A stretch of DNA of 64,000 bases, taken from the NCBI GenBank assembly GCA_016934265.1, contig JAFGTF010000070.1, forward strand, positions 1 to 64,000. The letters run 5' to 3'. The translations under genes and the position numbers were made by a program. Numbering within the stretch: the stretch's first letter is position 1; every line of letters begins with the position of its first letter. The DNA is from Spirochaetota bacterium (GTDB taxonomy: Bacteria; Spirochaetota; B62-G9; DRHN01). Positions 28,587 to 57,678 of this stretch are shown here, piece by piece. The notes below the pieces were generated by a model, which saw only the letters and a program-made list of their open reading frames with translations, was not told the origin of the DNA and searched no databases.

Positions 28587-29322
28587 CCCGTATCCTCTCG
28601 CGGATGATATCGTTGATGATCCGGTCCTGCTCGCCGCTCACCGAAAAAAGAAGCCGTTCGGCCTCCGCTTTCGAGAGCTCCCGCGTAGTACCGCCCGCCG
28701 TATTCTCATCCGCCGTTTTCCGGTCCGCGCCGCCTGATTCTCCCTGCGGCGTTTTTTGATCATCCGGCGCCGGGCGGTCTTTCTTTTGACTGTTATCCCC
28801 CGCGTCACCCTCGGCGGGTGTTTTCTCCATACCGCCCTGCGGGCCCTCACCCTCCTGCCTGGCGCCGTCCTTCTTTTCTTTCGCTTTCTTTCCTTCCAGC
28901 GCGAGCTCGAGATTGTATTTCATGTTAAGATTTGCCGGGTTAAGCTCAAGACCCTTGATATAGCTTTCAATCGCCTCGTCGTATTCACCTACCATGAGAT
29001 GGCTGTTCCCGAGGTTGTAGTAGATATCGGCCTTCTCATGCCTGCGCTTTGTGAAATCCAGCGAACGATCGAACGCGTCTATCGCAGCCGTGTAGTCCTC
29101 ACTTTTGTACAGCGCGTCCGCCCTGTTGAACACCGGCTCGAACACCCCGGGATTTTTTTCTTCGCCCTTCGTGTAGTTATCGAGTGCCTCGTCATACAGT
29201 TCGCTCTTGTAGTACCTGTTGCCGCGGGTGATGAGCCTTCCGTAGGTGTCCGCGCCGCAGTCGGCGGCAGCGAAGAAAAATATCACGGTAACGAACGTAA
29301 AAACACCGGCCGTCTTTTTCAT
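28561..29322 (-). CDS. batC: BatC TPR protein
   Basis: A 253-residue protein with an N-terminal hydrophobic signal (VFTFVTVIFFFAAADCGA). Three TPR units lie at about 25-145 (RGNRYYKSELYDEALDNYTKG, NRADALYKSEDYTAAIDAF, YNLGNSHLMVGEYDEAIESY), followed by a low-complexity charged region rich in Gly, Glu, Lys and Asp (about 150-215). Starts in an ATGA overlap with the batB stop. The TPR part probably holds BatA/BatB or BatD together. Confidence 0.86.
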   Translation of the reverse strand: MKKTAGVFTFVTVIFFFAAADCGADTYGRLITRGNRYYKSELYDEALDNYTKGEEKNPGVFEPVFNRADALYKSEDYTAAIDAFDRSLDFTKRRHEKADIYYNLGNSHLMVGEYDEAIESYIKGLELNPANLNMKYNLELALEGKKAKEKKDGARQEGEGPQGGMEKTPAEGDAGDNSQKKDRPAPDDQKTPQGESGGADRKTADENTAGGTTRELSKAEAERLLFSVSGEQDRIINDIIRERIRGGETEKDW

Positions 29323-30353
29323 GAGGTTTTTTTTACACCTCCGCCCGATCTCCTTGTGAGAAGAAATACGTATAACAAAAACAGCCAGATACCGGCGCCG
29401 AGCGGTATCTGGAAACGGTCCTCATACACGGTGAACCGTTTGGTCTGAAGATCCCGTTTCTTCATGTCACGAACCGCAGCAATCATCTTCTTCGCCTCGT
29501 CCACGGTCCGATCGGCTTGATAGTACGCACCGGAGGTCTCCCGGGAGATGGACCGCAAGATGTCGTCCCGCAGGGTCGAAATTACCACCTTTCCCGTCTT
29601 GTCCTTCTTGTAGCCCGTCTTTCCACCCGACTCGTCGTACAGGGGAATGGGGGCTCCCTCCATCGTGCCGATCCCGATACAGAAGACTCTGATACCGCGC
29701 CTTTTTATCGCCTGCAGCGTTTTACGATGATCGCCTACGGTACTCTCCCCGTCCGTGAGGAGCACAACGATCGCGTATGTCTCCTCTCCCGTCTGCAAAG
29801 AATCGAGGGCGACTGAAAGCGGCGCTTCGAGGGAAGTCCCGCCCGCCTCCGCCGTCGACTCGCCCGGCGAGCTGCTCAAGGAGCTGATAAACGAGCCGAC
29901 CGCTTCGTAGTCGTTTGTGAGGGGACACTGGACGAACGCATCCTGCGCGAACAGAATGAGCCCGACCCTGTCCCCCGAGAGGGAGCGTACGATCTCGAGG
30001 GCATCGAGCTTCGCCCTTTCGAGCCTGTTCGGTTTCACGTCCTCGACCGTCATGCTCATCGAGAGGTCTATCGCAATATACAGATCCGATCCCCTCACCG
30101 TCACCGGTTCCAACCTCGTACCCGCCTGCGGCCTCGCGAGCGCGAGAACGAAGAAAAGAAACGCCGCACATATCACAGCCCCCTGCGTGAGAAGCCCCCC
30201 GCTCATCCGTTTCGTCGCGAAGCGGTCGAGCCTGTCGGCGTCACCGAGCTCTTTCAGCGTCTTCTTTTTCCGCCTATCGCTTAAAAGGAAAAAGATATAC
30301 ACCACAGGCACGATTATAAGATAGTAGAGAATCTGCGGTTGGTAAAACCTCAT
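29319..30353 (-). CDS. batB: BatB, von Willebrand factor A protein
   Basis: A 344-residue membrane protein. N-terminal membrane spans bracket a VWA domain with a complete MIDAS motif (AIDLSMS, then SSSPGESTAEAGGTS and LLTDGESTVGD). A C-terminal membrane span is followed by a short basic tail (about 320-344). Paired with BatA. BatA and BatB proteins are linked in other bacteria to aerotolerance or cell-envelope maintenance; the exact job is unknown. Confidence 0.9.
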   Translation of the reverse strand: MRFYQPQILYYLIIVPVVYIFFLLSDRRKKKTLKELGDADRLDRFATKRMSGGLLTQGAVICAAFLFFVLALARPQAGTRLEPVTVRGSDLYIAIDLSMSMTVEDVKPNRLERAKLDALEIVRSLSGDRVGLILFAQDAFVQCPLTNDYEAVGSFISSLSSSPGESTAEAGGTSLEAPLSVALDSLQTGEETYAIVVLLTDGESTVGDHRKTLQAIKRRGIRVFCIGIGTMEGAPIPLYDESGGKTGYKKDKTGKVVISTLRDDILRSISRETSGAYYQADRTVDEAKKMIAAVRDMKKRDLQTKRFTVYEDRFQIPLGAGIWLFLLYVFLLTRRSGGGVKKTS

Positions 30354-30371
30354 AACAACGTCAGCCCTTTT

Positions 30372-31349
30372 CTACGGCAGTACCTTCAAGACTATCTTCT
30401 CGATCACTACATAGGCGAAGAGAAGGATCAGCCCAAAAGCGAGCGGGTAGACGAACCACTCCTTCACCCTTCTATATTGCTGTATCTCGATTTTACTCTT
30501 TTCAAGCGCGTCGATCTCTCTGTATATCTCGACGAGCTTCTCCGTGTCGGTGGCTCTGAAATAGCGTCCCGCCGTTATTTCGGCGATACGCCGAAGCACC
30601 GCCTCGTCGATCTGGACCGGAACGTACACGTACCGCTTGCCGAGCACGGGATCTTCCACGGGAAACGGCGCGTTCTGCGTGCTTCCCACACCTATCGTAT
30701 ATACTCTGATGCCGAACGCCTTTGTCGCATATGCCGCGGTGATCGGGTCGACCTCCCCGCTGTTGTTGATTCCGTCCGTGAGCAGGATGAGCACCTTGCT
30801 CTTTTCTTTTCCCTGGTTCAGCCGCTTCGTCCCCTCTATGATTGCGTTCCCTATCGCCGTCCCGTCCTGTATCATTCCCGTTTCTATGCCGTCTATGAAT
30901 CCGTACAGCATCGAATAATCGATCGTCAGCGGACTGTGGGTTATCGCCTTCCGGCTGAACACCACGAGCCCGATCTTGTCGTTCTTTCTTCCCTCGATGA
31001 AATCCTTTGCCACGTTCCGCGCCGCACCGAGTCTGTTGGGCTTGAAATCCTCGGCCTTCATGCTCGACGATATGTCGACTGCGAGCATGATGTCTATACC
31101 CTCGGTGATGAGCTTCTCCTCGATATATCCCTTCTGCGGACGGGCGAGGGAAAAAACGAAGGCGCCGAGCGAAAGGGCGAGAAGAACCCTCGAAAAGACA
31201 AGCAGCCTCGTGCGAAAGGTCTTGCCGCCGGGAAAGAACCGGTATATCCCGGTCCGAAGGGTCCTTGAAAACAGTCCCCAGCGGAGATAGTAGTACACGA
31301 GGGGAACGATACTGAGCCCCCACAGTATCTGCGGATTCTTGAACTCCAC
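30372..31349 (-). CDS. batA: BatA, von Willebrand factor A protein
   Basis: A 325-residue homologue of BatB. VWA MIDAS residues are in AVDISSSMKAED, TAIGNAI and LLTDGINNSG. A membrane span near the N-terminus and one near the C-terminus (LAFGLILLFAYVVI) flank the domain. The GTG start is three bases after the preceding gene's stop, after a G-rich ribosome site that lies in that gene's final codons. Confidence 0.9.
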   Translation of the reverse strand: MEFKNPQILWGLSIVPLVYYYLRWGLFSRTLRTGIYRFFPGGKTFRTRLLVFSRVLLALSLGAFVFSLARPQKGYIEEKLITEGIDIMLAVDISSSMKAEDFKPNRLGAARNVAKDFIEGRKNDKIGLVVFSRKAITHSPLTIDYSMLYGFIDGIETGMIQDGTAIGNAIIEGTKRLNQGKEKSKVLILLTDGINNSGEVDPITAAYATKAFGIRVYTIGVGSTQNAPFPVEDPVLGKRYVYVPVQIDEAVLRRIAEITAGRYFRATDTEKLVEIYREIDALEKSKIEIQQYRRVKEWFVYPLAFGLILLFAYVVIEKIVLKVLP

Positions 31350-31352
31350 CGA

Positions 31353-32321
31353 TCAATCCCCCCCGCCCTCTTTTTCATCCCGTTTGCCTATCGCGTCATG
31401 CACCTCGCGTACGATACCGATCGATTCATCCACGTCGGATACGACCTTCCCCTTTTCCGGGCTGTCCTTGGCGAACTTTACGAGGTCGCTTTTTTTTAGC
31501 AATCCGAGAAACCGGCGCTGAGGCACGATAGGGAAATCGTCCCGCTTAAGATACCGGGCAAGCTGGTTGGTTGTCATCCGGGACGCATTGAACCGCATAA
31601 TCGAACCGATGAATAGCCTCATGATGAGAGAGAGCTCGGAATAGGCCTGCTTCGTGCCTATCGAGTCCTTTATGAAGCCGGCCCGCACCCGCTCGAGCGC
31701 TTCGATCGAGCGCCCGTAGGGGTCAGGGTCAGACGCCGCCTGCGTCTCGACGTCGGGACGTCCTCGTTTTTTGCTCTTCACAAACCGGTACAGAAAATAT
31801 CCGATCCCGCATGCCGCTATGATCGAGCCGAACACGATCAGCACGGTCGACCGTCTGGTCCTCGGCCGGTACGGAGGAACGATCTCCTTGAGCCGGTGGG
31901 CCTCCTCATCCTTCGGCAGCACGGAGAGTATATGTATCTGAAGCGGCTCGGTATTCAGCACTTGCTCTTCGATCTTCACCGGGAGAGACGGAAACGTCAC
32001 CGTGCCCGTCTCGAACACGGCCACGGTGTATACGGCGATCGTCTTGTAGGTGTCCTTCGCGACCCTCGAGCGTTTCTGTGAAAAACCCCGTACGGTGAAG
32101 GGAGCGAACAGCTCCTCTTCCTGCGGGAAGCCGACTTTACCCTGTCTGTCCGCGATGACGGTGTACAGTATGTCGATAGGGTCCCCTATGGTGAACGGTC
32201 CCTCGCTCAGAATGGAGCCGGACACCGTGGGCGTTTCGGGCGCCCAGTGCTCCCTTCTACCGCAGCCGGTTCCGGGGACAAGAAGAAGGAAAAGTATCGC
32301 TGTAGTGATTATCTTTCTCAT
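31353..32321 (-). CDS. Bat-operon membrane protein (hypothetical)
   Basis: A protein of about 322 residues with an N-terminal export signal ending at GTGC, a weak lipoprotein-like site, a predicted beta-sandwich periplasmic half (about 25-150), a membrane span near 165-185 (LIVFGSIIAACGIGYFLYRF), and a helical cytoplasmic half. Its position between the DUF58 and batA genes matches the extra membrane subunit, DUF4381-like in some genomes, found in these operons. It probably belongs to the same complex. The ATG at 32321 is preferred over an upstream TTG. Confidence 0.7.
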   Translation of the reverse strand: MRKIITTAILFLLLVPGTGCGRREHWAPETPTVSGSILSEGPFTIGDPIDILYTVIADRQGKVGFPQEEELFAPFTVRGFSQKRSRVAKDTYKTIAVYTVAVFETGTVTFPSLPVKIEEQVLNTEPLQIHILSVLPKDEEAHRLKEIVPPYRPRTRRSTVLIVFGSIIAACGIGYFLYRFVKSKKRGRPDVETQAASDPDPYGRSIEALERVRAGFIKDSIGTKQAYSELSLIMRLFIGSIMRFNASRMTTNQLARYLKRDDFPIVPQRRFLGLLKKSDLVKFAKDSPEKGKVVSDVDESIGIVREVHDAIGKRDEKEGGGD

Positions 32322-32341
32322 ACGGGGTACCAAAATAAAAA

Positions 32342-33220
32342 CTACAGCCTCCTCGCCCTTCTCTGAAAGAACTCGAAAAGCGGCCGGATATACGGCCGCT
32401 CCGTTGATATCTCGATGTAATCGATCCCGAGTGCTATAAACAGCTTTTTCGCCGCCACCCTGCTCGCGTTCAGCCTTCTTCTGTACTCATTTTTCGTATG
32501 CGGATCCGCCATGTCCATAAGACCGGATTCGTGTCCCTCGATGTCTCCGAGAAGGAAGATCCCGCCGGAATCGGCGAGGCGGCTGTCGAACGGGTCTTCG
32601 ATCAGTATCGGGATGACATCGTGCCGTTTCGCCATCAGCTTGAACGATTTCTCATACCCGGTATCGTAGAAATCGGAGAGTATGAACACGATGCTCTTCG
32701 TCGTCTGGACCGTGCTTATCCAATCGAACGCGTTCCTCATGTCGGTCTTTTCACCCTGGACCTGGTGATACAGAAGCTCGCGGAGAATCCGCAACGCATG
32801 CGTCTTGTCCTTTCTCGGCGGCACGTACTGCTCGACCCGATCGGAGAACAAAACCGCACCGACCTGATCGTTGTTCTCGACCGCGCTGAAGGCGAGCAAT
32901 GCGGCGATCTCTATCATGCAGTCCCGTTTCGACATACGGCGAGAACCGAAAGAGGTGGAAGCGCTCATATCGAAGAGGATCGACACGACGAGCTCTCGCT
33001 CCTCCTCGTATACCTTTACGAACGGCTTTCCGAACCGCGCGGTTACGTTCCAGTCGATGAGCCTCGTGTCGTCACCGTACTGATATTCCCGCGTCTCGCT
33101 GAACTCTATCCCCCTGCCCTTGAAGGTGGAATGGTACTCGCCGCTGAAGATCTCGTCCACCAAAAGTTTTGTTTTGATATCGAGAAGCCGTACCCGCTTG
33201 ATAAGCTCTTTGGGGATCAT
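32342..33220 (-). CDS. DUF58 domain protein
   Basis: A 292-residue protein of the DUF58 family, which has a von Willebrand-like fold. It contains GEYHSTFKGRGIEFSETREYQYGDD followed by DWNVTARFGKPFVK, and a VWA-like loop LFDMSASTSFGS. It is always encoded beside MoxR in this type of operon and is thought to be a client or effector of the MoxR ATPase. ATG start immediately before a conserved PKELIKRVR segment. Confidence 0.9.
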   Translation of the reverse strand: MIPKELIKRVRLLDIKTKLLVDEIFSGEYHSTFKGRGIEFSETREYQYGDDTRLIDWNVTARFGKPFVKVYEEERELVVSILFDMSASTSFGSRRMSKRDCMIEIAALLAFSAVENNDQVGAVLFSDRVEQYVPPRKDKTHALRILRELLYHQVQGEKTDMRNAFDWISTVQTTKSIVFILSDFYDTGYEKSFKLMAKRHDVIPILIEDPFDSRLADSGGIFLLGDIEGHESGLMDMADPHTKNEYRRRLNASRVAAKKLFIALGIDYIEISTERPYIRPLFEFFQRRARRL

Positions 33221-33237
33221 CGTCTTGGCCTCGACAT

Positions 33238-34227
33238 TTACGGGACCTCCACGCCGCTTAGGATCTTCCCGATGACGTCCTCCGGTGTGATGTCCTCGGC
33301 CTGCGCCTCGTAGGTGAGGATCAGCCGGTGCCGAAGCACTTCGTACCCGATGTCGCGCACGTCGTCCGGAATTACGTACCCCCTTCCGTGCAGAAACGCG
33401 TTCGCCTTCGCGCCTGCCTTCAAAAAGAGAGACGCACGCGGGCTTGCACCGAAAGCGATGAGGTCCTTTATGTCGGCAAGCTCATACCCCTCAGGGTCCC
33501 TCGATGCCGCCACGAGATCGACGATATAGCGCTCGACCTTTTCATCCATATATATGGCATGAAGCGTCTTCTTCGCACGCTCGAGATCCCCCCTCGCCAC
33601 CACGGGCGAGACCCGGGGGGAACTTCCGGAGCCGTGTACGCGAAGTATACCGACCTCCTCCTCTTTCGACGGGTAATCCAGCCGTAGCTTCATCATGAAA
33701 CGGTCCACCTGCGCTTCGGGAAGCGGGTAGGTCCCGTGCTGTTCGATCGGGTTTTGCGTTGCGATGACGATGAATGCCGAGTCAAGCCCGTAACTTTTAT
33801 CGCCGATCGTGACCTGGCGTTCCTGCATAGCCTCGAGCAGCGCGCTCTGCGTCTTCGCCGGCGCACGGTTGATCTCGTCAGCGAGGATGACAGCGGAGAA
33901 TAACGGCCCCTTCTTCACCTGGAACTCTCCGGTCTTCTGGTTGTAGACCATCGTTCCTACGAGGTCGGCGGGGAGCATGTCAGGAGTGAATTGAATACGG
34001 TTGAAGGGAAGACTGAGCGCTTGTGCGAAGGTGCTCACCGTGAGGGTTTTTGCGAGTCCCGGAACCCCCTCGATGAGCAGATGACCGTTCGCGAGGAGGC
34101 CGATGATGATCTTGTCGACCATGTCCGTCTGGCCCACGATCACCTTTCCCACCTCGGCCCTCAGCCGTTCGATCGCCCCGCTCTCCTTATCGATCTTCTT
34201 CTGTGCGGCCCGGATCTCTTCATCCAT
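33238..34227 (-). CDS. MoxR-type AAA+ ATPase
   Basis: A 329-residue AAA+ ATPase. The nucleotide site is GVPGLAKTL (modified Walker A) with Walker B in ADEINRAPAKTQ; a sensor-1 region ATQNPIEQHGTYPLPEAQ follows. First gene of the MoxR-DUF58-Bat operon, with GGGAG before the ATG. MoxR proteins act as chaperone-like ATPases on VWA-domain partners, here BatA, BatB or the DUF58 protein. Confidence 0.92.
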   Translation of the reverse strand: MDEEIRAAQKKIDKESGAIERLRAEVGKVIVGQTDMVDKIIIGLLANGHLLIEGVPGLAKTLTVSTFAQALSLPFNRIQFTPDMLPADLVGTMVYNQKTGEFQVKKGPLFSAVILADEINRAPAKTQSALLEAMQERQVTIGDKSYGLDSAFIVIATQNPIEQHGTYPLPEAQVDRFMMKLRLDYPSKEEEVGILRVHGSGSSPRVSPVVARGDLERAKKTLHAIYMDEKVERYIVDLVAASRDPEGYELADIKDLIAFGASPRASLFLKAGAKANAFLHGRGYVIPDDVRDIGYEVLRHRLILTYEAQAEDITPEDVIGKILSGVEVP

Positions 34228-36328: not shown

Positions 36329-37099
36329 ATGTTCCGGAAAAAGGGAAAAAACCAGGATATCTCGGGCATCCTGAAGGGGTGGGATTACGACCTCAGGCAG
36401 GACATGATGGTCAGGAGGATCACAGGCGCAGACGGGAAGCCGAAAATCCAGATGCGGCTGGATCTCGGCATTCTACAGATGGAGGAGGGGGGACGCCCGG
36501 ACGGTAAAAAACCCCACGGCAAGGAATCCCTTCTCCACTACTACGAATCGGTCGTTTCGTGGATGAAAAAGAAATACGGTGCGGTTACGGACTTTACGCT
36601 TGACAAGGACGACTGCTACGCCCTCCAGCAGGAAGGATTTCAATACTACTACCGCTACCTCTGCTTCTTTCAGCTCGGCGATTTCATCCGGGCCGAACGG
36701 GATACCGCGAGGAACCTCAAGATGTTCGATTTCGTAAAGAGGTACGCGGGCGACGAGAGGTATGTCGAGGAGTTCGAGCAGTACAGGCCGTATGTCATCA
36801 TGATGAATACGAGGGCGAAGGTGCTCGGGGCGCTGAAGTCCAAAGACGCGTCGCGTGCTGTCAACGAGATCAATCACGGCATACACAAGATAGAAACGGC
36901 ATACGAGAAACAGGCCCAAACAGATGATTATGAGGGGTCTGAGATCGCCTTTTTGAAAAACTGGGCCGAGGAGATAGTGAAGGACCATACCCCATCCAAG
37001 CGTCAGCGGCTCGTAGAAGAGCTTCAGTCGGCCATCGCGAATGAGGAGTACGAACGTGCCGCGCAGATACGGGACAGGCTGAAACGTATGAAGCACTAG
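36329..37099 (+). CDS. UvrB/UvrC-motif protein
   Basis: A 256-residue protein. The last 35 residues form a UvrB/UvrC (UVR) motif (LVEELQSAIANEEYERAAQIRDRLKRM). The N-terminal 80 residues hold a basic start and YDLRQDMMVRRITG; the middle has a helical, TPR-like region (YYYRYLCFFQLGDFIRAERD). Proteins of this type follow STAS genes in spirochaete genomes, in my knowledge. It may be an adaptor that binds other proteins through the UVR motif. Its stop shares the palindrome CTAG with the convergent trmB stop. Confidence 0.75.
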   Translation: MFRKKGKNQDISGILKGWDYDLRQDMMVRRITGADGKPKIQMRLDLGILQMEEGGRPDGKKPHGKESLLHYYESVVSWMKKKYGAVTDFTLDKDDCYALQQEGFQYYYRYLCFFQLGDFIRAERDTARNLKMFDFVKRYAGDERYVEEFEQYRPYVIMMNTRAKVLGALKSKDASRAVNEINHGIHKIETAYEKQAQTDDYEGSEIAFLKNWAEEIVKDHTPSKRQRLVEELQSAIANEEYERAAQIRDRLKRMKH

Positions 37100-37824
37100 G
37101 ACGTCGTATTTTCACGCGTACAATCAGTCTTTTTTTTTATCCACTGAAGGAAGTAGAGCGGTCTTCCCTCCTTTTTGAACCTTTCCAAAAACAACGTTCT
37201 CGGATATTCGTCGGGGTAGTCTCCCCATCCTCTCGAATAGGGGCTTTCGAAACCGTCGACGGACTCAAACGATGCAATGATAAAATCCCTGTATTCCTCA
37301 TGATCCGTTGCCACACAGACCTTTCCTCCGTCAACGAGCCTGTCTTTGAGCATCCTGACGAACCGGTCCGAAAGCAGACGGTGCTTGTGGTGACGCTTCT
37401 TCGGCCACGGGTCCGGAAACAGTATGATGAACTCATCGACCGTTTCCTCGTAAAGAAACTCCCATACGAAACGTCTCGTATCGCCGTGAAAGACGGCGAC
37501 GTTCCGTAATCCCCTCTTGCGCGCCTTCGAGGCGAACTTCCGAGCACGCCCGAGTAGGATTTCCGTCCCGATGTGGTTTTTATCGGGGTGTGTTTCCGAG
37601 TAATCGACGAGGAAGTGCCCGTTTCCCGACCCGATCTCCACGACGATCGGCCCTCTTCCCCGGAAGATACCGGCGAAATAGCGAAGGGATTCTTCCTTGT
37701 CCTGCGGCGGCAGCTCGTCTTTCACGGAATAGAGCGGCGGAAGTTCTTTTGACCTCTGCGTTTGTATTCCCGCCCGACCATCCCGACCGTTTCTCACCCC
37801 GTCACCGCCTTTTTCTCTCCGCAT
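37096..37824 (-). CDS. trmB: tRNA (guanine-N7)-methyltransferase
   Basis: A protein of about 242 residues. The SAM-binding site begins VVEIGSGNGHF; VDEFIILFPDPWPKKRHHKHRL is the TrmB signature with the catalytic acidic residue and the tRNA-binding basic loop. It methylates G46 of tRNA. The start at 37824 is an ATG inside the 3' end of the upstream activase gene (23-base overlap); a GTG at 37797 is an alternative. The basic N-terminal extension is unusual and may be untranslated. Confidence 0.88.
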   Translation of the reverse strand: MRREKGGDGVRNGRDGRAGIQTQRSKELPPLYSVKDELPPQDKEESLRYFAGIFRGRGPIVVEIGSGNGHFLVDYSETHPDKNHIGTEILLGRARKFASKARKRGLRNVAVFHGDTRRFVWEFLYEETVDEFIILFPDPWPKKRHHKHRLLSDRFVRMLKDRLVDGGKVCVATDHEEYRDFIIASFESVDGFESPYSRGWGDYPDEYPRTLFLERFKKEGRPLYFLQWIKKKTDCTRENTTS

Positions 37825-40800
37825 GCCGGGTCGTTCCCGTGCGGCCCGCATATTCTTTCGTCTGGTACATGAACGCCTCGAGCCTCGTATCCATTCCCGT
37901 GTCATCCTGCCCGTCGTATACTATGTTGACCCAGGGAATATTGTCGTAATCAGACCGGAACGACTGTGAAATCGCCGTTATCAGCGTTCCCGGCATACAG
38001 GTAAACGGAAGTATATTGGCGATACCGGATATCCCGGCGGGTACCTGCCCGGCGCTCGAACCCATAATTATCGCAGGCTCGCCGTCGTAGCTTTTGTCGA
38101 TATAGGGGCTGCAGAGCTTCAGGACCTCGCGGATAGGTATGTCCCGTCCGAAGTCAACCGAGCCGGTGACCGATTTCAGAACCTTCCGCTCGAGCAGGTG
38201 CTGGAAGAACTCGAACATCTTCGAGGCTACGATACCTTTCAGATCCCTCTTCCAGACGCTGTCCCTGAAGAAACGGTAGGTGGAATAGTGTATCCACTCC
38301 CTAACAGGGGCTATCATCGTTTCCGCACCGAGCCGTTCAAGCTTTTTTACGACATGACCGCTGCAGAACGGGTTGTCCCGCATGAAAATCTCGCCGGTTA
38401 CGGATATTAAAGGCTTTCTCTCAAGGTCCGTCGTTTCGATCGAAGAAAACGCCTCCGCAGCATCGGCGAGAACACCCTCGATATTCCTCCCCCCCCGCTC
38501 CGCATCCCGAATAAGCTCGTCGCGGTATCGGGCATACAGACGGTCGCTTTTCCCCGGCACTCTCTCATACGGACGCTTCTGTTGCAGGAGCTTTCTGAGC
38601 ATGTCTATACCGACCGTCCCTTTCCACACGGGAACCCAGAACTTCACGATCCGGCCCCCCGAGAGATCGGCGTATGCGTTGTCGTTTCCCGGAGATATAA
38701 GCTCGACCTCTCCGAAACCGAGCCTGTCGAGGATAGTCCGCTGAAGCCTGTTGTACTGCCCGAACCGGCAGGGCCCGTTGTGGTCCGGCATAAAAAAGCT
38801 CGAACGCGCGGGATCGAATCCGTTTTCGAAGGCTTTCTTCAAAAAAGAGCCCGTCGTACAAATCATGGGAAAGCACTCCCGCGACGATGTGTATTTCCTC
38901 CCGAGATCGAGGTCGATCTCGTCCTGCGGCGGCAGGACCTCGGCATGGATGCCGCATGACCTCGACCCTGCGGCGAGCACGTGCGCATGATCGCTCATAT
39001 ACGGCACGTAGAGCTTTCTCTCTTTCACCGGCGCATGCCGCATCACCTGCGGTACGGATATGGACCGGCGCGTATCACTTTCCGCATCTTCGCCGCTTTT
39101 GGGGACGATGCGGGCGGGCCTTCTCTTCCGAAGGCTGTCTAAAAACGCCTCGCAGCGGGTGATCATGCCTGCATCCGCGCTGTGCTCGTCCACCTCGAGC
39201 TGAAGATAGGGTTTCTTTTTCATCTCTTCACGAACGAAATGCAAAAGAAAAGAGTCCGGGCCGCACCTGAAGTTTCCGAGATAGACCGCGTCGAGACGGC
39301 GGTCGCTTGACACAATCCTGGCCGCCTCGAGAATTTTTCTTCCGTTCGGCCAGTACATCATCCGGTACTCCCCGTATATGTTTTCTTTTTCCAGTGGAAG
39401 AAAATCCATGGGAACGGGAAGCACCTCCAGACTTATGAGCTTCTTAACGAGGTCGAGATTGAGCTGCGGATCGTTCGTGTTATAGGGCCTCCCGATGACG
39501 ACTACCGCTTTCCTGCTCCCGTCGAGCTCTTCCAACGCCTTTTTTCCCGCTTCCCTCACCCGACGCTCGAAATCTCGCTGCGCCCCGTCCGCCTCTTCTA
39601 CCGCACTCCGGACAGATGAGTGCGAAATACCGAAACGCGCTCCCATGTACGATGCGAGCTCGCGGTTTAAAACCGCACCGAAGTAGCGAAAGTGAAGCGC
39701 CGGAGTCATTAATTTTTCCTCATCTTTCGTGTTCCGTAAAAGCGCCCTTACCATATAGGGAACAGTCTGAACCCAGGGGCAGTTGTAGTATACGGTCGGG
39801 TTATTTTTCTCCGCCTTCGAGTTCACCACGGATGGGAGCCATATGTGGTCCACACCCGCTCTTAGAAGCTCGAACACATGTCCGTGCATCACCTCTACGG
39901 GGAAACAGGTCTCCGCTGTGATACGCTCCAGTGATTTCGTAACGAGACTGTGCGAGGAGGGGGGGGAAACAACCACCCTGAATCCGAGTGTCTCGAAAAA
40001 CCGCCTCCAGAATGGGAACTGCTGGTAGAATACCATCAACCCTCTTGGGATACCGATGGTAATACGGCTTCCGGCCGTATTACTATCAGCCGGCAAACTA
40101 TCATTCTCAAAGTCGCCCAAGAGGAGTTTCTCCCTGACCGCGAAGAGGTTCGGGATATCTTTCCCCCTCCCCTTGCGGTCTTCCATCTCGTACCGCTCAC
40201 ACCGGCCGCCGTAGAAAAGCGGCCTCATCTCACCCTCAATCCGCACCCGCCGGATCTCGCACCGGTTCGGGCAGCGTTTGCACGTGAACGTGTCGACCTT
40301 GTACCCTGTTCTGCTTATCGAAAATCCCTTGAACCGCGTGGAGGACGACCCGACGGCGTCTTTGGCGAGCATCGCGGCCCCTATCGCACCGGTGACATCG
40401 TGATGCGGGGGTACGATTATCGGCTTACCCGTCACCTTCTCGAAGGCGGCGACCACCGAACGATTGTACGCGACCCCCCCCTGAAAGAAGATACGGTCCG
40501 CAACGCGTTTGGTACCGACAACTTTCTGAAGGTAGTTGTACACGATCGAGTAGGAAAGCCCGGCGACGAGGTTCTCTTTACGCGCCCCCTTCTGCTGGTG
40601 CGCGTTGAGGTCCGATTCCATGAACACCGTACACCTGTCTCCGAGCTTGACGGGCTTTTTGGCCTCGATCGCGATTTCGCCGAACTCGTCTATGATGTCG
40701 ACGCCGAGTTTCTCCGCCTGCTCTTCTAAAAAGGATCCGGTGCCTGCGGCGCATACCTTGTTCATTTCGAAATCGACGATCACGCCGTTGTCGATACTTA

Positions 40801-42091
40801 TGAACTTGGAGTCCTGGCCGCCGATCTCGAACACCGTGTCCACCGACGGGTCTATCGCGATTGCAGCGGTGGCCTGGGCGGTGATCTCGTTCTGTATCGT
40901 ATCCGCGCCGACGAAGTCCCCGGTGAGGTACCTTCCGGACCCCGTCGTCCCCACGGCCCGCACCCTCACCCGATCGCCCGCCTCCGCGTCGATCTCCGCC
41001 ATGCCCCGCCTGATCGCCTCGAGAGGCTTCCCGGAAGTGGGGAGGTAGCGTCGTGCGATCACCCTGTTTTGATCGTCTATCAGCACGACGTTCGTGCTCA
41101 ACGATCCGACATCGAGCCCGAGATACACATCCGTTACGCCGCGTGATTCTTCAGCCGCGACCACATCCGCCCGCACCTGCTTCGTAATGGACACCGCGTG
41201 CGAAAGCGGCGCGAGCGTTTCGCAGTCGTCGTCCGTCGAATGTATGTATTGTTGAAGCGCCGCAAAGCCTATGAACGGACGCTCCACCTCGGGAGGAAAA
41301 TCGAAAAGGTGGAACAGGGAGCCTATCGCTCCCATCGAGGCGTGGTGTTCGGGAACGACGGGTTCGCCGTCAGGGAGATCGAACACTTCCCTGAATGCAC
41401 GCACCATACCGGCGTTCGCAGCGACACCCCCCTGAAAGAGTACTGGTCGGGGCAGGGCTTTTCCCCGTGCCAGGTGGCTCTTGAAGTTTCGAGCCACCGC
41501 AAAGCAGAGACCGGCGACGATATCGCAGAGCGGTGTCGCTATCTGCTGGAGGTGAATCATGTCGCTCTTGGCGAACACGCTGCAGCGTCCCGCGATCCGC
41601 GGCGGTTCGGAAGACTCGAGCGCCAGCTGCCCGAACTCGTCCTCAATACTAACCCCGATCCTCCTCGCCTGCTGGTCCAAGAACGAGCCCGTTCCTGCCG
41701 CGCAGATGCTGTTCATTGCAAAATCGACGAGCTCCGAACGGCCGCCTTTTCGTTCCATGAAGATGAGCTTCGAATCCTCTCCTCCCATCTCGATCACGGT
41801 CCGGACCTCCCCGTATAAACGGGAGACGGCACAAGACTGTGCGACGATCTCGTTTATGTAATGACCCCCGATGAGAGAAGCGGCGAGCGGCCCGCCCGTA
41901 CCGGTGATCCCGATACGGCGGATGTCTTTTTCACCGAACTTTACGGTGACATCGCGAAGTATGTCGCAGAGGAGGGTGAACGGTCTGCCCCGACAGTACT
42001 CGTACCTGTCTTCAAGGATACGTCTTTCTTCGTCCATGACCACCGTATTGATAGAAACGGACCCGATGTCGAGACCGAGGTAATACTTCAT
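37802..42091 (-). CDS. tandem acyl-CoA dehydratase activase-like protein
   Basis: A 1429-residue multidomain protein. Two BadF/HgdC-type ASKHA ATPase domains lie in tandem at about 1-290 and 320-595. Each keeps both cysteine elements of the activator (ICAAGTGSFL with RCSVFAKSD; VCAAGTGSFLEEQ with RCTVFMESD), so one chain could build the bridging [4Fe-4S] cluster that in HgdC needs two subunits. A Cys cluster CKRCPNRC at about 605 is followed by a DUF2229-type region and then two dehydratase-related domains (FRCGPDSF; FFMPDHNGPCRFGQY). Such proteins occur in many anaerobes with no dehydratase beside them. The reaction is unknown; ATP-driven electron transfer is inferred. Confidence 0.85.
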   Translation of the reverse strand: MKYYLGLDIGSVSINTVVMDEERRILEDRYEYCRGRPFTLLCDILRDVTVKFGEKDIRRIGITGTGGPLAASLIGGHYINEIVAQSCAVSRLYGEVRTVIEMGGEDSKLIFMERKGGRSELVDFAMNSICAAGTGSFLDQQARRIGVSIEDEFGQLALESSEPPRIAGRCSVFAKSDMIHLQQIATPLCDIVAGLCFAVARNFKSHLARGKALPRPVLFQGGVAANAGMVRAFREVFDLPDGEPVVPEHHASMGAIGSLFHLFDFPPEVERPFIGFAALQQYIHSTDDDCETLAPLSHAVSITKQVRADVVAAEESRGVTDVYLGLDVGSLSTNVVLIDDQNRVIARRYLPTSGKPLEAIRRGMAEIDAEAGDRVRVRAVGTTGSGRYLTGDFVGADTIQNEITAQATAAIAIDPSVDTVFEIGGQDSKFISIDNGVIVDFEMNKVCAAGTGSFLEEQAEKLGVDIIDEFGEIAIEAKKPVKLGDRCTVFMESDLNAHQQKGARKENLVAGLSYSIVYNYLQKVVGTKRVADRIFFQGGVAYNRSVVAAFEKVTGKPIIVPPHHDVTGAIGAAMLAKDAVGSSSTRFKGFSISRTGYKVDTFTCKRCPNRCEIRRVRIEGEMRPLFYGGRCERYEMEDRKGRGKDIPNLFAVREKLLLGDFENDSLPADSNTAGSRITIGIPRGLMVFYQQFPFWRRFFETLGFRVVVSPPSSHSLVTKSLERITAETCFPVEVMHGHVFELLRAGVDHIWLPSVVNSKAEKNNPTVYYNCPWVQTVPYMVRALLRNTKDEEKLMTPALHFRYFGAVLNRELASYMGARFGISHSSVRSAVEEADGAQRDFERRVREAGKKALEELDGSRKAVVVIGRPYNTNDPQLNLDLVKKLISLEVLPVPMDFLPLEKENIYGEYRMMYWPNGRKILEAARIVSSDRRLDAVYLGNFRCGPDSFLLHFVREEMKKKPYLQLEVDEHSADAGMITRCEAFLDSLRKRRPARIVPKSGEDAESDTRRSISVPQVMRHAPVKERKLYVPYMSDHAHVLAAGSRSCGIHAEVLPPQDEIDLDLGRKYTSSRECFPMICTTGSFLKKAFENGFDPARSSFFMPDHNGPCRFGQYNRLQRTILDRLGFGEVELISPGNDNAYADLSGGRIVKFWVPVWKGTVGIDMLRKLLQQKRPYERVPGKSDRLYARYRDELIRDAERGGRNIEGVLADAAEAFSSIETTDLERKPLISVTGEIFMRDNPFCSGHVVKKLERLGAETMIAPVREWIHYSTYRFFRDSVWKRDLKGIVASKMFEFFQHLLERKVLKSVTGSVDFGRDIPIREVLKLCSPYIDKSYDGEPAIIMGSSAGQVPAGISGIANILPFTCMPGTLITAISQSFRSDYDNIPWVNIVYDGQDDTGMDTRLEAFMYQTKEYAGRTGTTRHAERKRR

Positions 42092-42355: not shown

Positions 42356-43594
42356 ATGAGAACGCTTTTTTTTGTACTGGCTTTCATAGTGGTATCGAGC
42401 CCGCTGTTCGCACGAAGCGAAAAAATCAGTTTCTGGCACGGCCAGGGATTTCATGCGAAGCGGATTATCGAGGAACTTGTAAACGAGTACAACCGGTCGC
42501 AGAGCGATGTTCATGTGGACGCGGTGTTTCAGGGACTCTACCAGGACATGGAAGTTAAGATGCTTGCAGCCGCCGTGACACGCCAGCTCCCCGAAGTCGC
42601 TCTCGAGCAGATCGAGTACATCGATCTCTATATCAAAGAGGGACTGATCCCCCCCATCGATGCCGCCGTCAAAGAAGAGACGAGAAAGGATGTCCACGGG
42701 GTCATGTGGGATGCCGTTACCCGCGAAGGAAAGACGTATGGGGTTCCGTTCTGCATGAGCACCACGGTCCTGTTCTATAACAGGGATGCGTTCAAACGGG
42801 CGGGCCTCGACCCCGACAAACCTCCGGAAACATGGGACCAGATAATCGCGGCTGGCCGTCGCCTTACCGTTGACGAGGACAAAGACGGCAGCCCAGACCG
42901 CTTCGCGATCAGCGTGTGGCAGAACGGCCTGTACGGATGGGCGCCGATTCTCTGGGCGAACGGCGGCACGCTTTTTTCAGAGGACGGAACGAAGATCGAC
43001 CTTACCTCCCCGGCGATGAAAACAACGATAGGCATGCTCAAAGACCTCGTCTATAAATACGGCATTATGCCGAAAAGCTGGACCGACTGGGAGTCGGGCC
43101 AGGCGTTTCTCGCAGGAGACCTCGCCATGGGATTTTTCTCGAGCGCGGGGATCGCGTACAGCGAGCAGAACCTCCCCTGGAGTCTCGGTGTCGCCCCAAT
43201 GCCGTCCATAAACGGCCGGAAGTTCACGGTGCTCACCGGTTCCGCGCTCGTCAACTTCGCGAAAAACAGGAAGAAATGGAAGGCGGCGAACGATTTTATC
43301 TTCTGGCTTATCGAAAAACCCAATATCATCAGGCTTCACAAGGAGATCGGCTATATACCGGTACGGAAATCCGCCGCCGGCTCCCTCGACCTCAGGTCGT
43401 TTCACCGGGAGAACCCCAACTTCAGGATCCCCGTCGAAGAGCTGGCCTTTGCGAGGGCGCTTCCCCACCACAACGAGTATTTCAAGATCAACAAGCTCCT
43501 CATCGACATGCTGCAGCAGGTCATTCTCCAGGGATCGAGCCCGGACGAAACGCTTGCCGCCACTGAACGCGAGATAAACCTTCTGCTCAAGTGA
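42356..43594 (+). CDS. ABC-type sugar-binding protein (family 1), orphan
   Basis: A 412-residue exported solute receptor. Signal peptide residues 1-19 end at LFARS. The mature N-terminus KISFWHGQGFHAKRIIEELVNEYN and VDAVFQGLYQDMEVK are typical of UgpB/MalE-like receptors, and DEDKDGSPDRF forms a calcium-like acidic loop. No permease or ATPase gene lies beside it. It opens like the orphan receptor ending at 25202 (FWH, then VFQG), suggesting a paralogous pair. A strong promoter of its own precedes it. Confidence 0.85.
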   Translation: MRTLFFVLAFIVVSSPLFARSEKISFWHGQGFHAKRIIEELVNEYNRSQSDVHVDAVFQGLYQDMEVKMLAAAVTRQLPEVALEQIEYIDLYIKEGLIPPIDAAVKEETRKDVHGVMWDAVTREGKTYGVPFCMSTTVLFYNRDAFKRAGLDPDKPPETWDQIIAAGRRLTVDEDKDGSPDRFAISVWQNGLYGWAPILWANGGTLFSEDGTKIDLTSPAMKTTIGMLKDLVYKYGIMPKSWTDWESGQAFLAGDLAMGFFSSAGIAYSEQNLPWSLGVAPMPSINGRKFTVLTGSALVNFAKNRKKWKAANDFIFWLIEKPNIIRLHKEIGYIPVRKSAAGSLDLRSFHRENPNFRIPVEELAFARALPHHNEYFKINKLLIDMLQQVILQGSSPDETLAATEREINLLLK

Positions 43595-57467: not shown

Positions 57468-57678
57468 TGTCCGCCTCCATCCGACATTGTATGTTCGGTG
57501 ACAAGTATAGCCGAAAGAGGTATGAAACCGGTGGAGGGTGTGTGAAGATTCCGTGAAGTGTCGGGACCTGTGAACTCGCCGCAGACGTCGGATTTTGTAA
57601 CACAGCCATTTCATCATTGTCCCTGTGTGGACGGATTCTGAAAAATTGTAACAATACCATTTGCTGTTTTTTTAGTGT
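57468..57678. other. upstream region of the polyferredoxin operon
   Basis: No gene is visible here. The stretch should include the leftward promoter for the secreted protein and polyferredoxin; I do not see a convincing consensus match. Confidence 0.4.

What the first reader, a model, noticed from the sequence alone, without database searches (positions are those of the whole stretch)
37802..42091. Single-chain CoA dehydratase activase with two cysteine sites and extra domains
Seen: two activator domains in tandem, each with both cysteine motifs, fused to DUF2229 and dehydratase-like domains, and no dehydratase gene near. Established: HgdC-type activators are homodimers with a bridging cluster. 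Inference: this chain may form an internal pseudo-dimer and pass electrons to its own C-terminal domains; the substrate is unknown.
Basis: partly seen in the sequence, partly recalled or inferred. Interest (0 to 1): 0.5.

Follow-up and report, generated by a model that had tools for sequence, protein, structure and literature searches.

The report
One-chain ATP-driven iron-sulfur reductase, uncharacterised family
A single large bacterial protein appears to contain, on one chain, all the parts that other anaerobes build from three or four separate proteins to push electrons uphill with ATP; it belongs to an annotated family for which I found no known substrate.

Summary
Window 37802-42091 is one intact 1429-aa gene on the MINUS strand: two activase domains, each with both cluster cysteines, then DUF2229 and a further domain. 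These extra domains are two dehydratase-type subunits: residues 672-1012 (h1) and 1018-1429 (h2) are homologous, each with three aligned cysteines, and h1 has the HadBC/BzdNO/double-cubane-protein fold.

Relatives occur as three genes (h1, h2, one activase with the motif), two genes, or one; the direction of change is not shown. In 35 fused pairs the cluster cysteines are kept 35/35 in both halves, but ten nucleotide-motif sites are all intact in 35/35 second halves and only 19/35 first halves.

Best reading: an internal pseudo-dimer with one bridging [4Fe-4S] cluster and a mainly one-sided ATPase feeds its own dehydratase-like pair; substrate unknown. Cysteine geometry could not be measured, because the tools return no coordinates. 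The family is already annotated; the mechanism is inference. New variant of a known kind.

The parts
37802..42091 (-). whole gene, 1429 aa, ATG at 42091, TGA at 37804-37802
41285..42091 (-). activase domain 1 (residues 1-269), cluster cysteines C130 and C170, nucleotide motifs present with GGEDSK instead of GGQDSK
40343..41134 (-). activase domain 2 (residues 320-583), cluster cysteines C447 and C487, full nucleotide motifs; fold of MbdQ and of the dehydratase activators, Z 27.6-29.7
40199..40282 (-). four-cysteine motif CxxCxNxC-x19-C (C604, C607, C611, C631), inferred Fe-S (or zinc) site
39092..40078 (-). h1, first dehydratase-like subunit domain (residues 672-1000; includes DUF2229 at 678-897), cysteines C729, C771, C943
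37847..39040 (-). h2, second dehydratase-like subunit domain (residues 1018-1415), cysteines C1073, C1108, C1365; homologous to h1

Best explanation
This is a complete ATP-dependent reductase (or dehydratase) machine on one chain. Act1 and act2 fold back on each other as the two halves of an HgdC-type dimer and share one [4Fe-4S] cluster held by C130, C170, C447 and C487. ATP binding and hydrolysis, in the family as a whole mainly in act2, opens the pair and drives a low-potential electron into the C-terminal half. That half is a pseudo-heterodimer of two HgdA/HgdB-type subunits, h1 and h2, each holding one [4Fe-4S]-type cluster by three cysteines. The four-cysteine motif between them probably holds a further cluster that works with h2. 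Shown by sequence: the domains, the conserved cysteines, the h1/h2 homology, the split-gene relatives and the one-sided decay of the nucleotide motif in relatives (the window's own act1 keeps it). Inferred: the pseudo-dimer geometry, the clusters, the direction of electron flow and the redox role. The substrate is unknown; relatives in Listeria and Fusobacterium suggest that it is not aromatic-CoA only.
For: Act1 and act2 align over 257 columns, 39% identity, E 2.8e-63. h1 and h2 align with all three cysteines in register: E 1.8e-3, probability 14.8% with 56 close relatives; E 8e-20, probability 99.2% with a wider set of 38 and 29 rows. The model of 590-1429 (pLDDT 85.5, pTM 0.85) matches HadBC, BzdNO, MbdON and DCCP at Z 11.6-15.0 over 271-285 residues, next unrelated row 7.3, all ten rows within residues 641-994, i.e. 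h1. Three-gene operons h1, h2, activase with the four-Cys tail: L120, L126, L127. Two-gene forms (act1-act2-four-Cys-h1, then h2): L100, L102, L105, L107, L109, L110, L121, L131. In split L120, h1 scores in both DUF2229 (174.5 bits) and HGD-D (37.5, cut-off 28.4), and h2 in DUF2229 (52.9) and, just at the cut-off, HGD-D (28.4). In a 77-row activase tree all 35 act1 lie on one side of one branch (99/95). All ten nucleotide-motif sites: act2 35/35, single 7/7, act1 19/35; both cysteines in every row.
Against: No distance between the four activase cysteines was measured. No fold match of its own was obtained for h2 (two rows at Z 5.8 touch it), and Foldseek's whole-chain scores are modest (E 3.9e-5 to 1.1e-3 for the nine relevant rows, target TM 0.41-0.51). 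The C-terminal profile finds no solved relative by sequence (best E 0.38). h2 meets the HGD-D set only weakly (E 3.8e-4, probability 35.9%). In the tree the four HgdC/DCCPR-type activases fall beside or inside the act2 group (act2 as one group only 62/90), so neither the root nor the direction (fusion or fission) is settled, and several act1 branches are long. The 35 pairs are a hand-chosen, partly related set, and the ten sites were picked by me from recalled motifs, with E allowed for Q and T for S; 5 of the 16 incomplete act1 differ only at the site of N543. The chain could pair with a second chain instead. Fe-S versus zinc at the four-Cys motif is untested. No neighbour cluster reaches more than 13 of 81 loci, so nothing names a substrate.
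Confidence: 0.7

Rival explanations
1. The chain dimerises: act1 of one chain pairs with act2 of another (or act1 with act1), giving two bridging clusters per dimer instead of an internal pseudo-dimer.
For: HgdC-type proteins are dimers (recalled); nothing here measures the geometry (one search gives confidence only). The stretch between act1 and act2 (about residues 270-319) might allow either arrangement.
Against: Act1 and act2 occur as a fixed pair in all 35 fused members examined and lie apart by one branch, as expected for complementary halves; act1:act1 dimers would often lack nucleotide sites.
Confidence: 0.15
2. It is only an activase, as annotated, serving a separate dehydratase elsewhere in the genome, and the C-terminal domains are regulatory.
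For: TIGR00241 names it an acyl-CoA dehydratase activase; the genome has an HGD-D pair on C27.
Against: The C27 pair has its own adjacent activase. In split relatives the C-terminal parts are separate genes; h2 is named 2-hydroxyacyl-CoA dehydratase and in L120 both score in HGD-D. Of the six cysteines of h1 and h2, five are C in 56 of 56 and C1365 in 55 of 56, with one gap.
Confidence: 0.07
3. It is a double-cubane (DCCP-like) reductase with an [8Fe-9S] cluster that reduces small molecules.
For: DCCP is among the fold matches of h1 (Z 13.7-14.2). The four-Cys motif could lend ligands to a second cubane.
Against: The [8Fe-9S] cluster of BzdN is held by six cysteines within one subunit (PMC11971306 section 8, read), whereas h1 and h2 have three conserved cysteines each. 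NCBI's double-cubane model does not hit the window's h1 or h2 at E up to 1.
Confidence: 0.05

Closest known systems
Class I benzoyl-CoA reductase (Bzd/Mbd type: two activase subunits plus two cluster subunits)
   Same: Same four building blocks in kind; act2 matches MbdQ best (Z 29.7) and h1 matches BzdNO/MbdON.
   Different: One chain instead of four; extra four-Cys motif; h1 and h2 have three conserved cysteines each whereas BzdN has six; no benzoyl-CoA reductase equivalog cut-off reached.
2-hydroxyacyl-CoA dehydratase with its activator (HgdC + HgdAB, HadBC)
   Same: Activase scores above the family cut-off; three-cysteine sites in both subunit domains; fold of h1 (Z 15.0).
   Different: Fusion of all parts, tandem activase, four-Cys motif; the window's h1 and h2 show no HGD-D hit at E up to 1 and no NCBIfam family.
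Double-cubane cluster protein and its reductase (DCCP:DCCPR)
   Same: Two-component ATP-driven logic; fold of h1 (Z 13.7-14.2) and of act2 (Z 25.1).
   Different: DCCP carries a double cubane per monomer of a homodimer (PMC11971306 discussion, read); here three conserved cysteines per domain and two different domains.
NCBI 'acyl-CoA dehydratase activase' large proteins (COG1924/COG3580/COG3581, COG names recalled)
   Same: This is the family the gene belongs to; L121 (first gene), L122, L123 and L124 carry this name in public records.
   Different: No characterised member found in the papers searched.

Membership tests
HgdC-type acyl-CoA dehydratase activase | score above the curated family cut-off | tested here: met
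   TIGR00241 304 bits vs 125.4, two stretches
HgdC-type acyl-CoA dehydratase activase | two cluster cysteines per domain plus nucleotide motifs | tested here: met
   C130/C170 and C447/C487 in 56 of 56; all ten nucleotide sites present in both domains of the query, counting E for Q in act1
HgdC-type acyl-CoA dehydratase activase | dimer with one bridging [4Fe-4S] cluster | not testable with these tools
   no coordinates returned by structure prediction
2-hydroxyacyl-CoA dehydratase / BCR-I superfamily component | fold of HadB/HadC/BzdN/BzdO | tested here: met
   h1: Z 11.6-15.0 over 271-285 residues, next unrelated row 7.3
2-hydroxyacyl-CoA dehydratase / BCR-I superfamily component | same fold in h2 | tested here: inconclusive
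   h1 filled the fold list; homology of h2 to h1 by profile, E 8e-20
2-hydroxyacyl-CoA dehydratase / BCR-I superfamily component | three cluster cysteines per subunit | tested here: met
   C729/C771/C943 and C1073/C1108/C1365; C in 56 of 56, except C1365 in 55 of 56 with one gap; aligned with each other
characterised dehydratase or benzoyl-CoA reductase (equivalogs) | reaches an equivalog cut-off | tested here: not met
   no NCBIfam family for the window's h1 or h2; BCR A, D and Q models below cut-off
double-cubane cluster protein (NF040772) | six cluster cysteines in one subunit and the curated cut-off | tested here: not met
   three conserved cysteines per domain; no hit for the window, 23.4 bits vs 350 for split L120 h1
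2-hydroxyacyl-CoA dehydratase / BCR-I superfamily component | acts on a CoA ester | not testable with these tools
   needs assay or structure

The most novel reading that the evidence does not exclude
A separate, common branch of ATP-driven iron-sulfur reductases in which a paired activase has become an asymmetric engine: act2 is the ATPase, act1 is kept mainly to hold half of the bridging cluster, and a four-cysteine relay, not seen in the four ordinary activases tested, feeds the second catalytic half. A sub-branch that lacks the relay also lacks the h2 cluster. The substrate is an unrecognised, non-aromatic compound handled by many anaerobes and some facultative bacteria.
Probability: 0.3. 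Interest if true: 0.75.

Novelty: new variant of a known kind. Interest (0 to 1): 0.5.

Why it matters
ATP-driven electron activation outside nitrogenase is known from a few multi-subunit systems. A one-chain version with a fixed 1:1:1:1 make-up would be a simple object for structure and kinetics, and the natural three-, two- and one-gene forms give direct tests of which parts work together. The family is common: DUF2229 is in 131 of 198 genomes of the window's phylum, and relatives were seen in Bacteroidota and Thermodesulfobacteriota, Bacillota, Fusobacteriota and Actinomycetota. I found no substrate for it.

Tried and rejected
Gene neighbours: among 81 loci (80 plus the window; many are short) no neighbour cluster reaches more than 13 loci. 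That one, a ferredoxin-like protein, is in 13 loci whose records are all labelled Bacteroidales, Bacteroidetes or Bacteroidota; trmB is in 3, two of them directly downstream.

Sequence search of the C-terminal profile against solved structures: nothing (best E 0.38). Pfam and NCBIfam on window h2 alone: no family. A stricter fixed-spacing pattern for the four-Cys motif found 53 of 56 close relatives, whereas the alignment shows all 56.

Rex-site idea, from a CoA-substrate-specific enzyme activase of Lactobacillus oligofermentans in a Rex-motif table (PMC4972977, passage seen; its length was not checked): the strict 18-base pattern occurs once in the window, at 57487, not near the gene; degenerate sites were not tested. 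PMC5495212 (passage seen) lists a Streptococcus gallolyticus activase as up-regulated; not followed.

Selenium link: PMC5322559 (passage seen) lists an activase beside YedE/YedF; it could not be tied to this family. The Sao transporter lead gave only a weak hit (24.6 bits vs 300; PMC13188914 passages seen) and was dropped.

Papers: searches on DUF2229, acyl-CoA dehydratase activase, CoA-substrate-specific enzyme activase, other activase names, COG3581 and BadF/BcrA combinations showed no characterised member; of the papers listed I opened only those named in this report. PMC7306483: passages seen. The two PNAS papers on DCCP (2018, 2022) are not held, so whether they discuss such fusions is unknown to me. 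Without coordinates no cysteine distances were computed. The genome survey covered only the window's own phylum, because the genome search accepts only genome handles as a centre.

Full report
WHAT IS THERE. The gene is an uninterrupted frame on the minus strand, 42091 to 37802, 1429 aa. The next gene on that strand looks like trmB (named by eye); its likely GTG start at 37797 lies 4 bases after the stop, so the two may be co-translated (read by eye). A divergent gene at 42356 looks like a sugar-transporter binding protein (by eye). G003, which they place in the same family as the window's genome, encodes the same protein as L010, a Spirochaetota record, so the phylum is inferred to be Spirochaetota.

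DOMAINS. Pfam: BcrAD_BadFG twice, DUF2229 at 678-897. NCBIfam: TIGR00241 twice, 304 bits. Against solved structures act2 is closest to the dehydratase activators and to MbdQ. I aligned the query with 55 of the 80 loci over the whole length. The cysteines at 130, 170, 196; 447, 487; 604, 607, 611, 631; 729, 771, 943; 1073 and 1108 are C in 56 of 56, and that at 1365 in 55 with one gap. C196 is not universal in wider relatives.

THE C-TERMINAL HALF IS A PAIR OF DEHYDRATASE-LIKE SUBUNITS. The profile of 672-1012 aligned to that of 1018-1429 puts C729 on C1073, C771 on C1108 and C943 on C1365: E 1.8e-3 but probability only 14.8% with the narrow set, E 8e-20 and probability 99.2% with the wide set (38 h1 rows, 29 h2 rows). 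The wide h1 profile meets an HGD-D set of six at E 6e-8 (probability 94.7%) over its C-terminal part, with the third cysteine aligned; h2 meets it weakly, E 3.8e-4 and probability 35.9%. The AlphaFold2 model of 590-1429 (43 sequences, pLDDT 85.5, pTM 0.85) is matched over residues 641-994 by (R)-2-hydroxyisocaproyl-CoA dehydratase (Z 15.0, 4.0 angstrom, 277 residues), BzdNO, DCCP and MbdON (ten rows, Z 11.6-15.0); the next, unrelated row is 7.3. Foldseek ranks the same families first, E 3.9e-5 to 1.1e-3. Of the 50 rows shown only two touch h2, both at Z 5.8; the tool warns that this is not a negative result.

THE FOUR-CYSTEINE MOTIF. C-x2-C-x-N-x-C-x(17-21)-C follows act2 (L100 has C-x5-C at the start). 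A pattern search found it in 36 of 38 family proteins, the exceptions being L103 and L122, and in 0 of 4 ordinary HgdC- or DCCPR-type activases. In three-gene relatives it is the tail of the single activase, so it belongs with the activase rather than with h1. In a second alignment of 25 rows (24 different, since L010 and L101 are one protein), 23 rows keep all 14 cysteines, C196 left aside; the two exceptions are L103 and L104. This joint loss suggests that the motif and the h2 cluster work together; it may be a single event, and the h2 alignment of these proteins is weak.

SPLIT AND FUSED FORMS. Three genes in the order h1, h2, activase: L120 (Monoglobus), L126 and L127 (window's phylum). 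Two genes: L100, L102, L105, L107, L109, L110, L121, L131. One gene: the window and the majority of relatives seen. In the 59 genomes of the window's phylum, 36 had a match; counting its table by hand, 56 places lie in single open frames of 1371 aa or more (recount), seven look two-gene, two three-gene, and a few are unclear or may reach contig ends. DUF2229 is in 131 of 198 genomes of the phylum, often in several copies.

THE ACTIVASE PAIR AND ITS ASYMMETRY. A 77-row tree (35 act1, 35 act2, three split activases, four HgdC/DCCPR-type) separates all act1 from everything else by one branch (99/95). The split activases come off next to that branch. The four HgdC/DCCPR-type rows fall beside or within act2 (act2 as one group 62/90). 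If the root lies on the HgdC-type branch, the split activases are nearer act1; if it lies between act1 and act2, they are nearer the duplication. The data do not choose, so fusion from three genes and fission into three are both open, and long act1 branches add doubt. Of ten nucleotide-motif sites, which I chose from recalled motifs (E allowed for Q, T for S), all are present in 35 of 35 act2, 7 of 7 single and 19 of 35 act1; both cluster cysteines are present in every row. Of the 16 incomplete act1, five differ only by L at the N543 site; one (L131) has gaps at three sites because its alignment starts late, besides F at the N543 site. Five residues after the second cysteine (175/492), act1 has K in 32 of 35, while act2 has E in 21 and N in 12. 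The window's own act1 keeps the motifs with E for Q. The simplest reading is that act1 is kept above all to complete the cluster, which argues for a shared cluster and hence a pseudo-dimer; this does not depend on the direction of the gene fusions.

MECHANISM. By analogy with BzdNO and its activase (PMC11971306; sections 8 and 12 read and other passages seen), an electron from the activase cluster would pass, with ATP hydrolysis, to the C-terminal clusters. That paper assigns three cysteines plus water or hydroxide to the [4Fe-4S] of BzdO and six cysteines to the double cubane of BzdN. The 3+3 pattern here is like the HAD dimer, which that paper describes as holding one catalytic [4Fe-4S]-OH2 and one [4Fe-5S] cluster. 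Which of h1 and h2 is catalytic cannot be told; the paralogs that keep only the h1 cysteines point, weakly, to h1.

WHAT WAS NOT SETTLED. The model of 1-1012 (pLDDT 84.2, pTM 0.77) should contain the answer on cysteine geometry, but no coordinates are returned. Substrate: no conserved partner gene. Relatives in Collinsella, Haliovirga, Listeria, Subdoligranulum, Fusobacterium, Acetoanaerobium and Paraclostridium match at 27-32% identity over 78-99% of the query; this speaks against a role limited to aromatic degradation, by inference.

NOVELTY. The sequence family is annotated in public records. I found no paper on a characterised member, but the library lacks most subscription journals and the two DCCP papers.

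Noticed in passing
L103 4347-8138, L104 5552-9301, L122 4992-8840: A 1249-1282-aa paralog without the four-Cys motif and without h2 cysteines lies beside ABC-importer genes in all three loci (annotated in L122, by eye in L103 and L104), with cupin genes annotated in L122. The L122 binding protein matches NMT1/THI5 and, below cut-off, SsuA-type models. The shared neighbourhood in two phyla suggests a linked substrate.
   Followed up: partly
window 37096-37797: trmB (tRNA guanine-N7 methyltransferase, named by eye) probably starts at GTG 37797, 4 bases after this gene's stop; it also follows directly in L010 (same place as L101) and is near in L061.
   Followed up: partly
G000:C27:23979-27134 (L001, L008, L009): The same genome has an ordinary three-gene activase plus HGD-D pair of the HgdC/HgdAB kind.
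   Followed up: no
L120 9250-9495: A TSCPD-domain protein (TIGR03905) follows the three-gene form in Monoglobus.
   Followed up: no
L133 738-3807: In Sulfurovum a single 2-hydroxyacyl-CoA-dehydratase-family gene and an activase lie between 4Fe-4S protein genes and an RND efflux pump gene, a possible DCCP-like system.
   Followed up: no
window 29319-34227: Frames that look like a MoxR ATPase / DUF58 / von Willebrand A cluster resembling the Bat aerotolerance operon (named from recall; frames).
   Followed up: no
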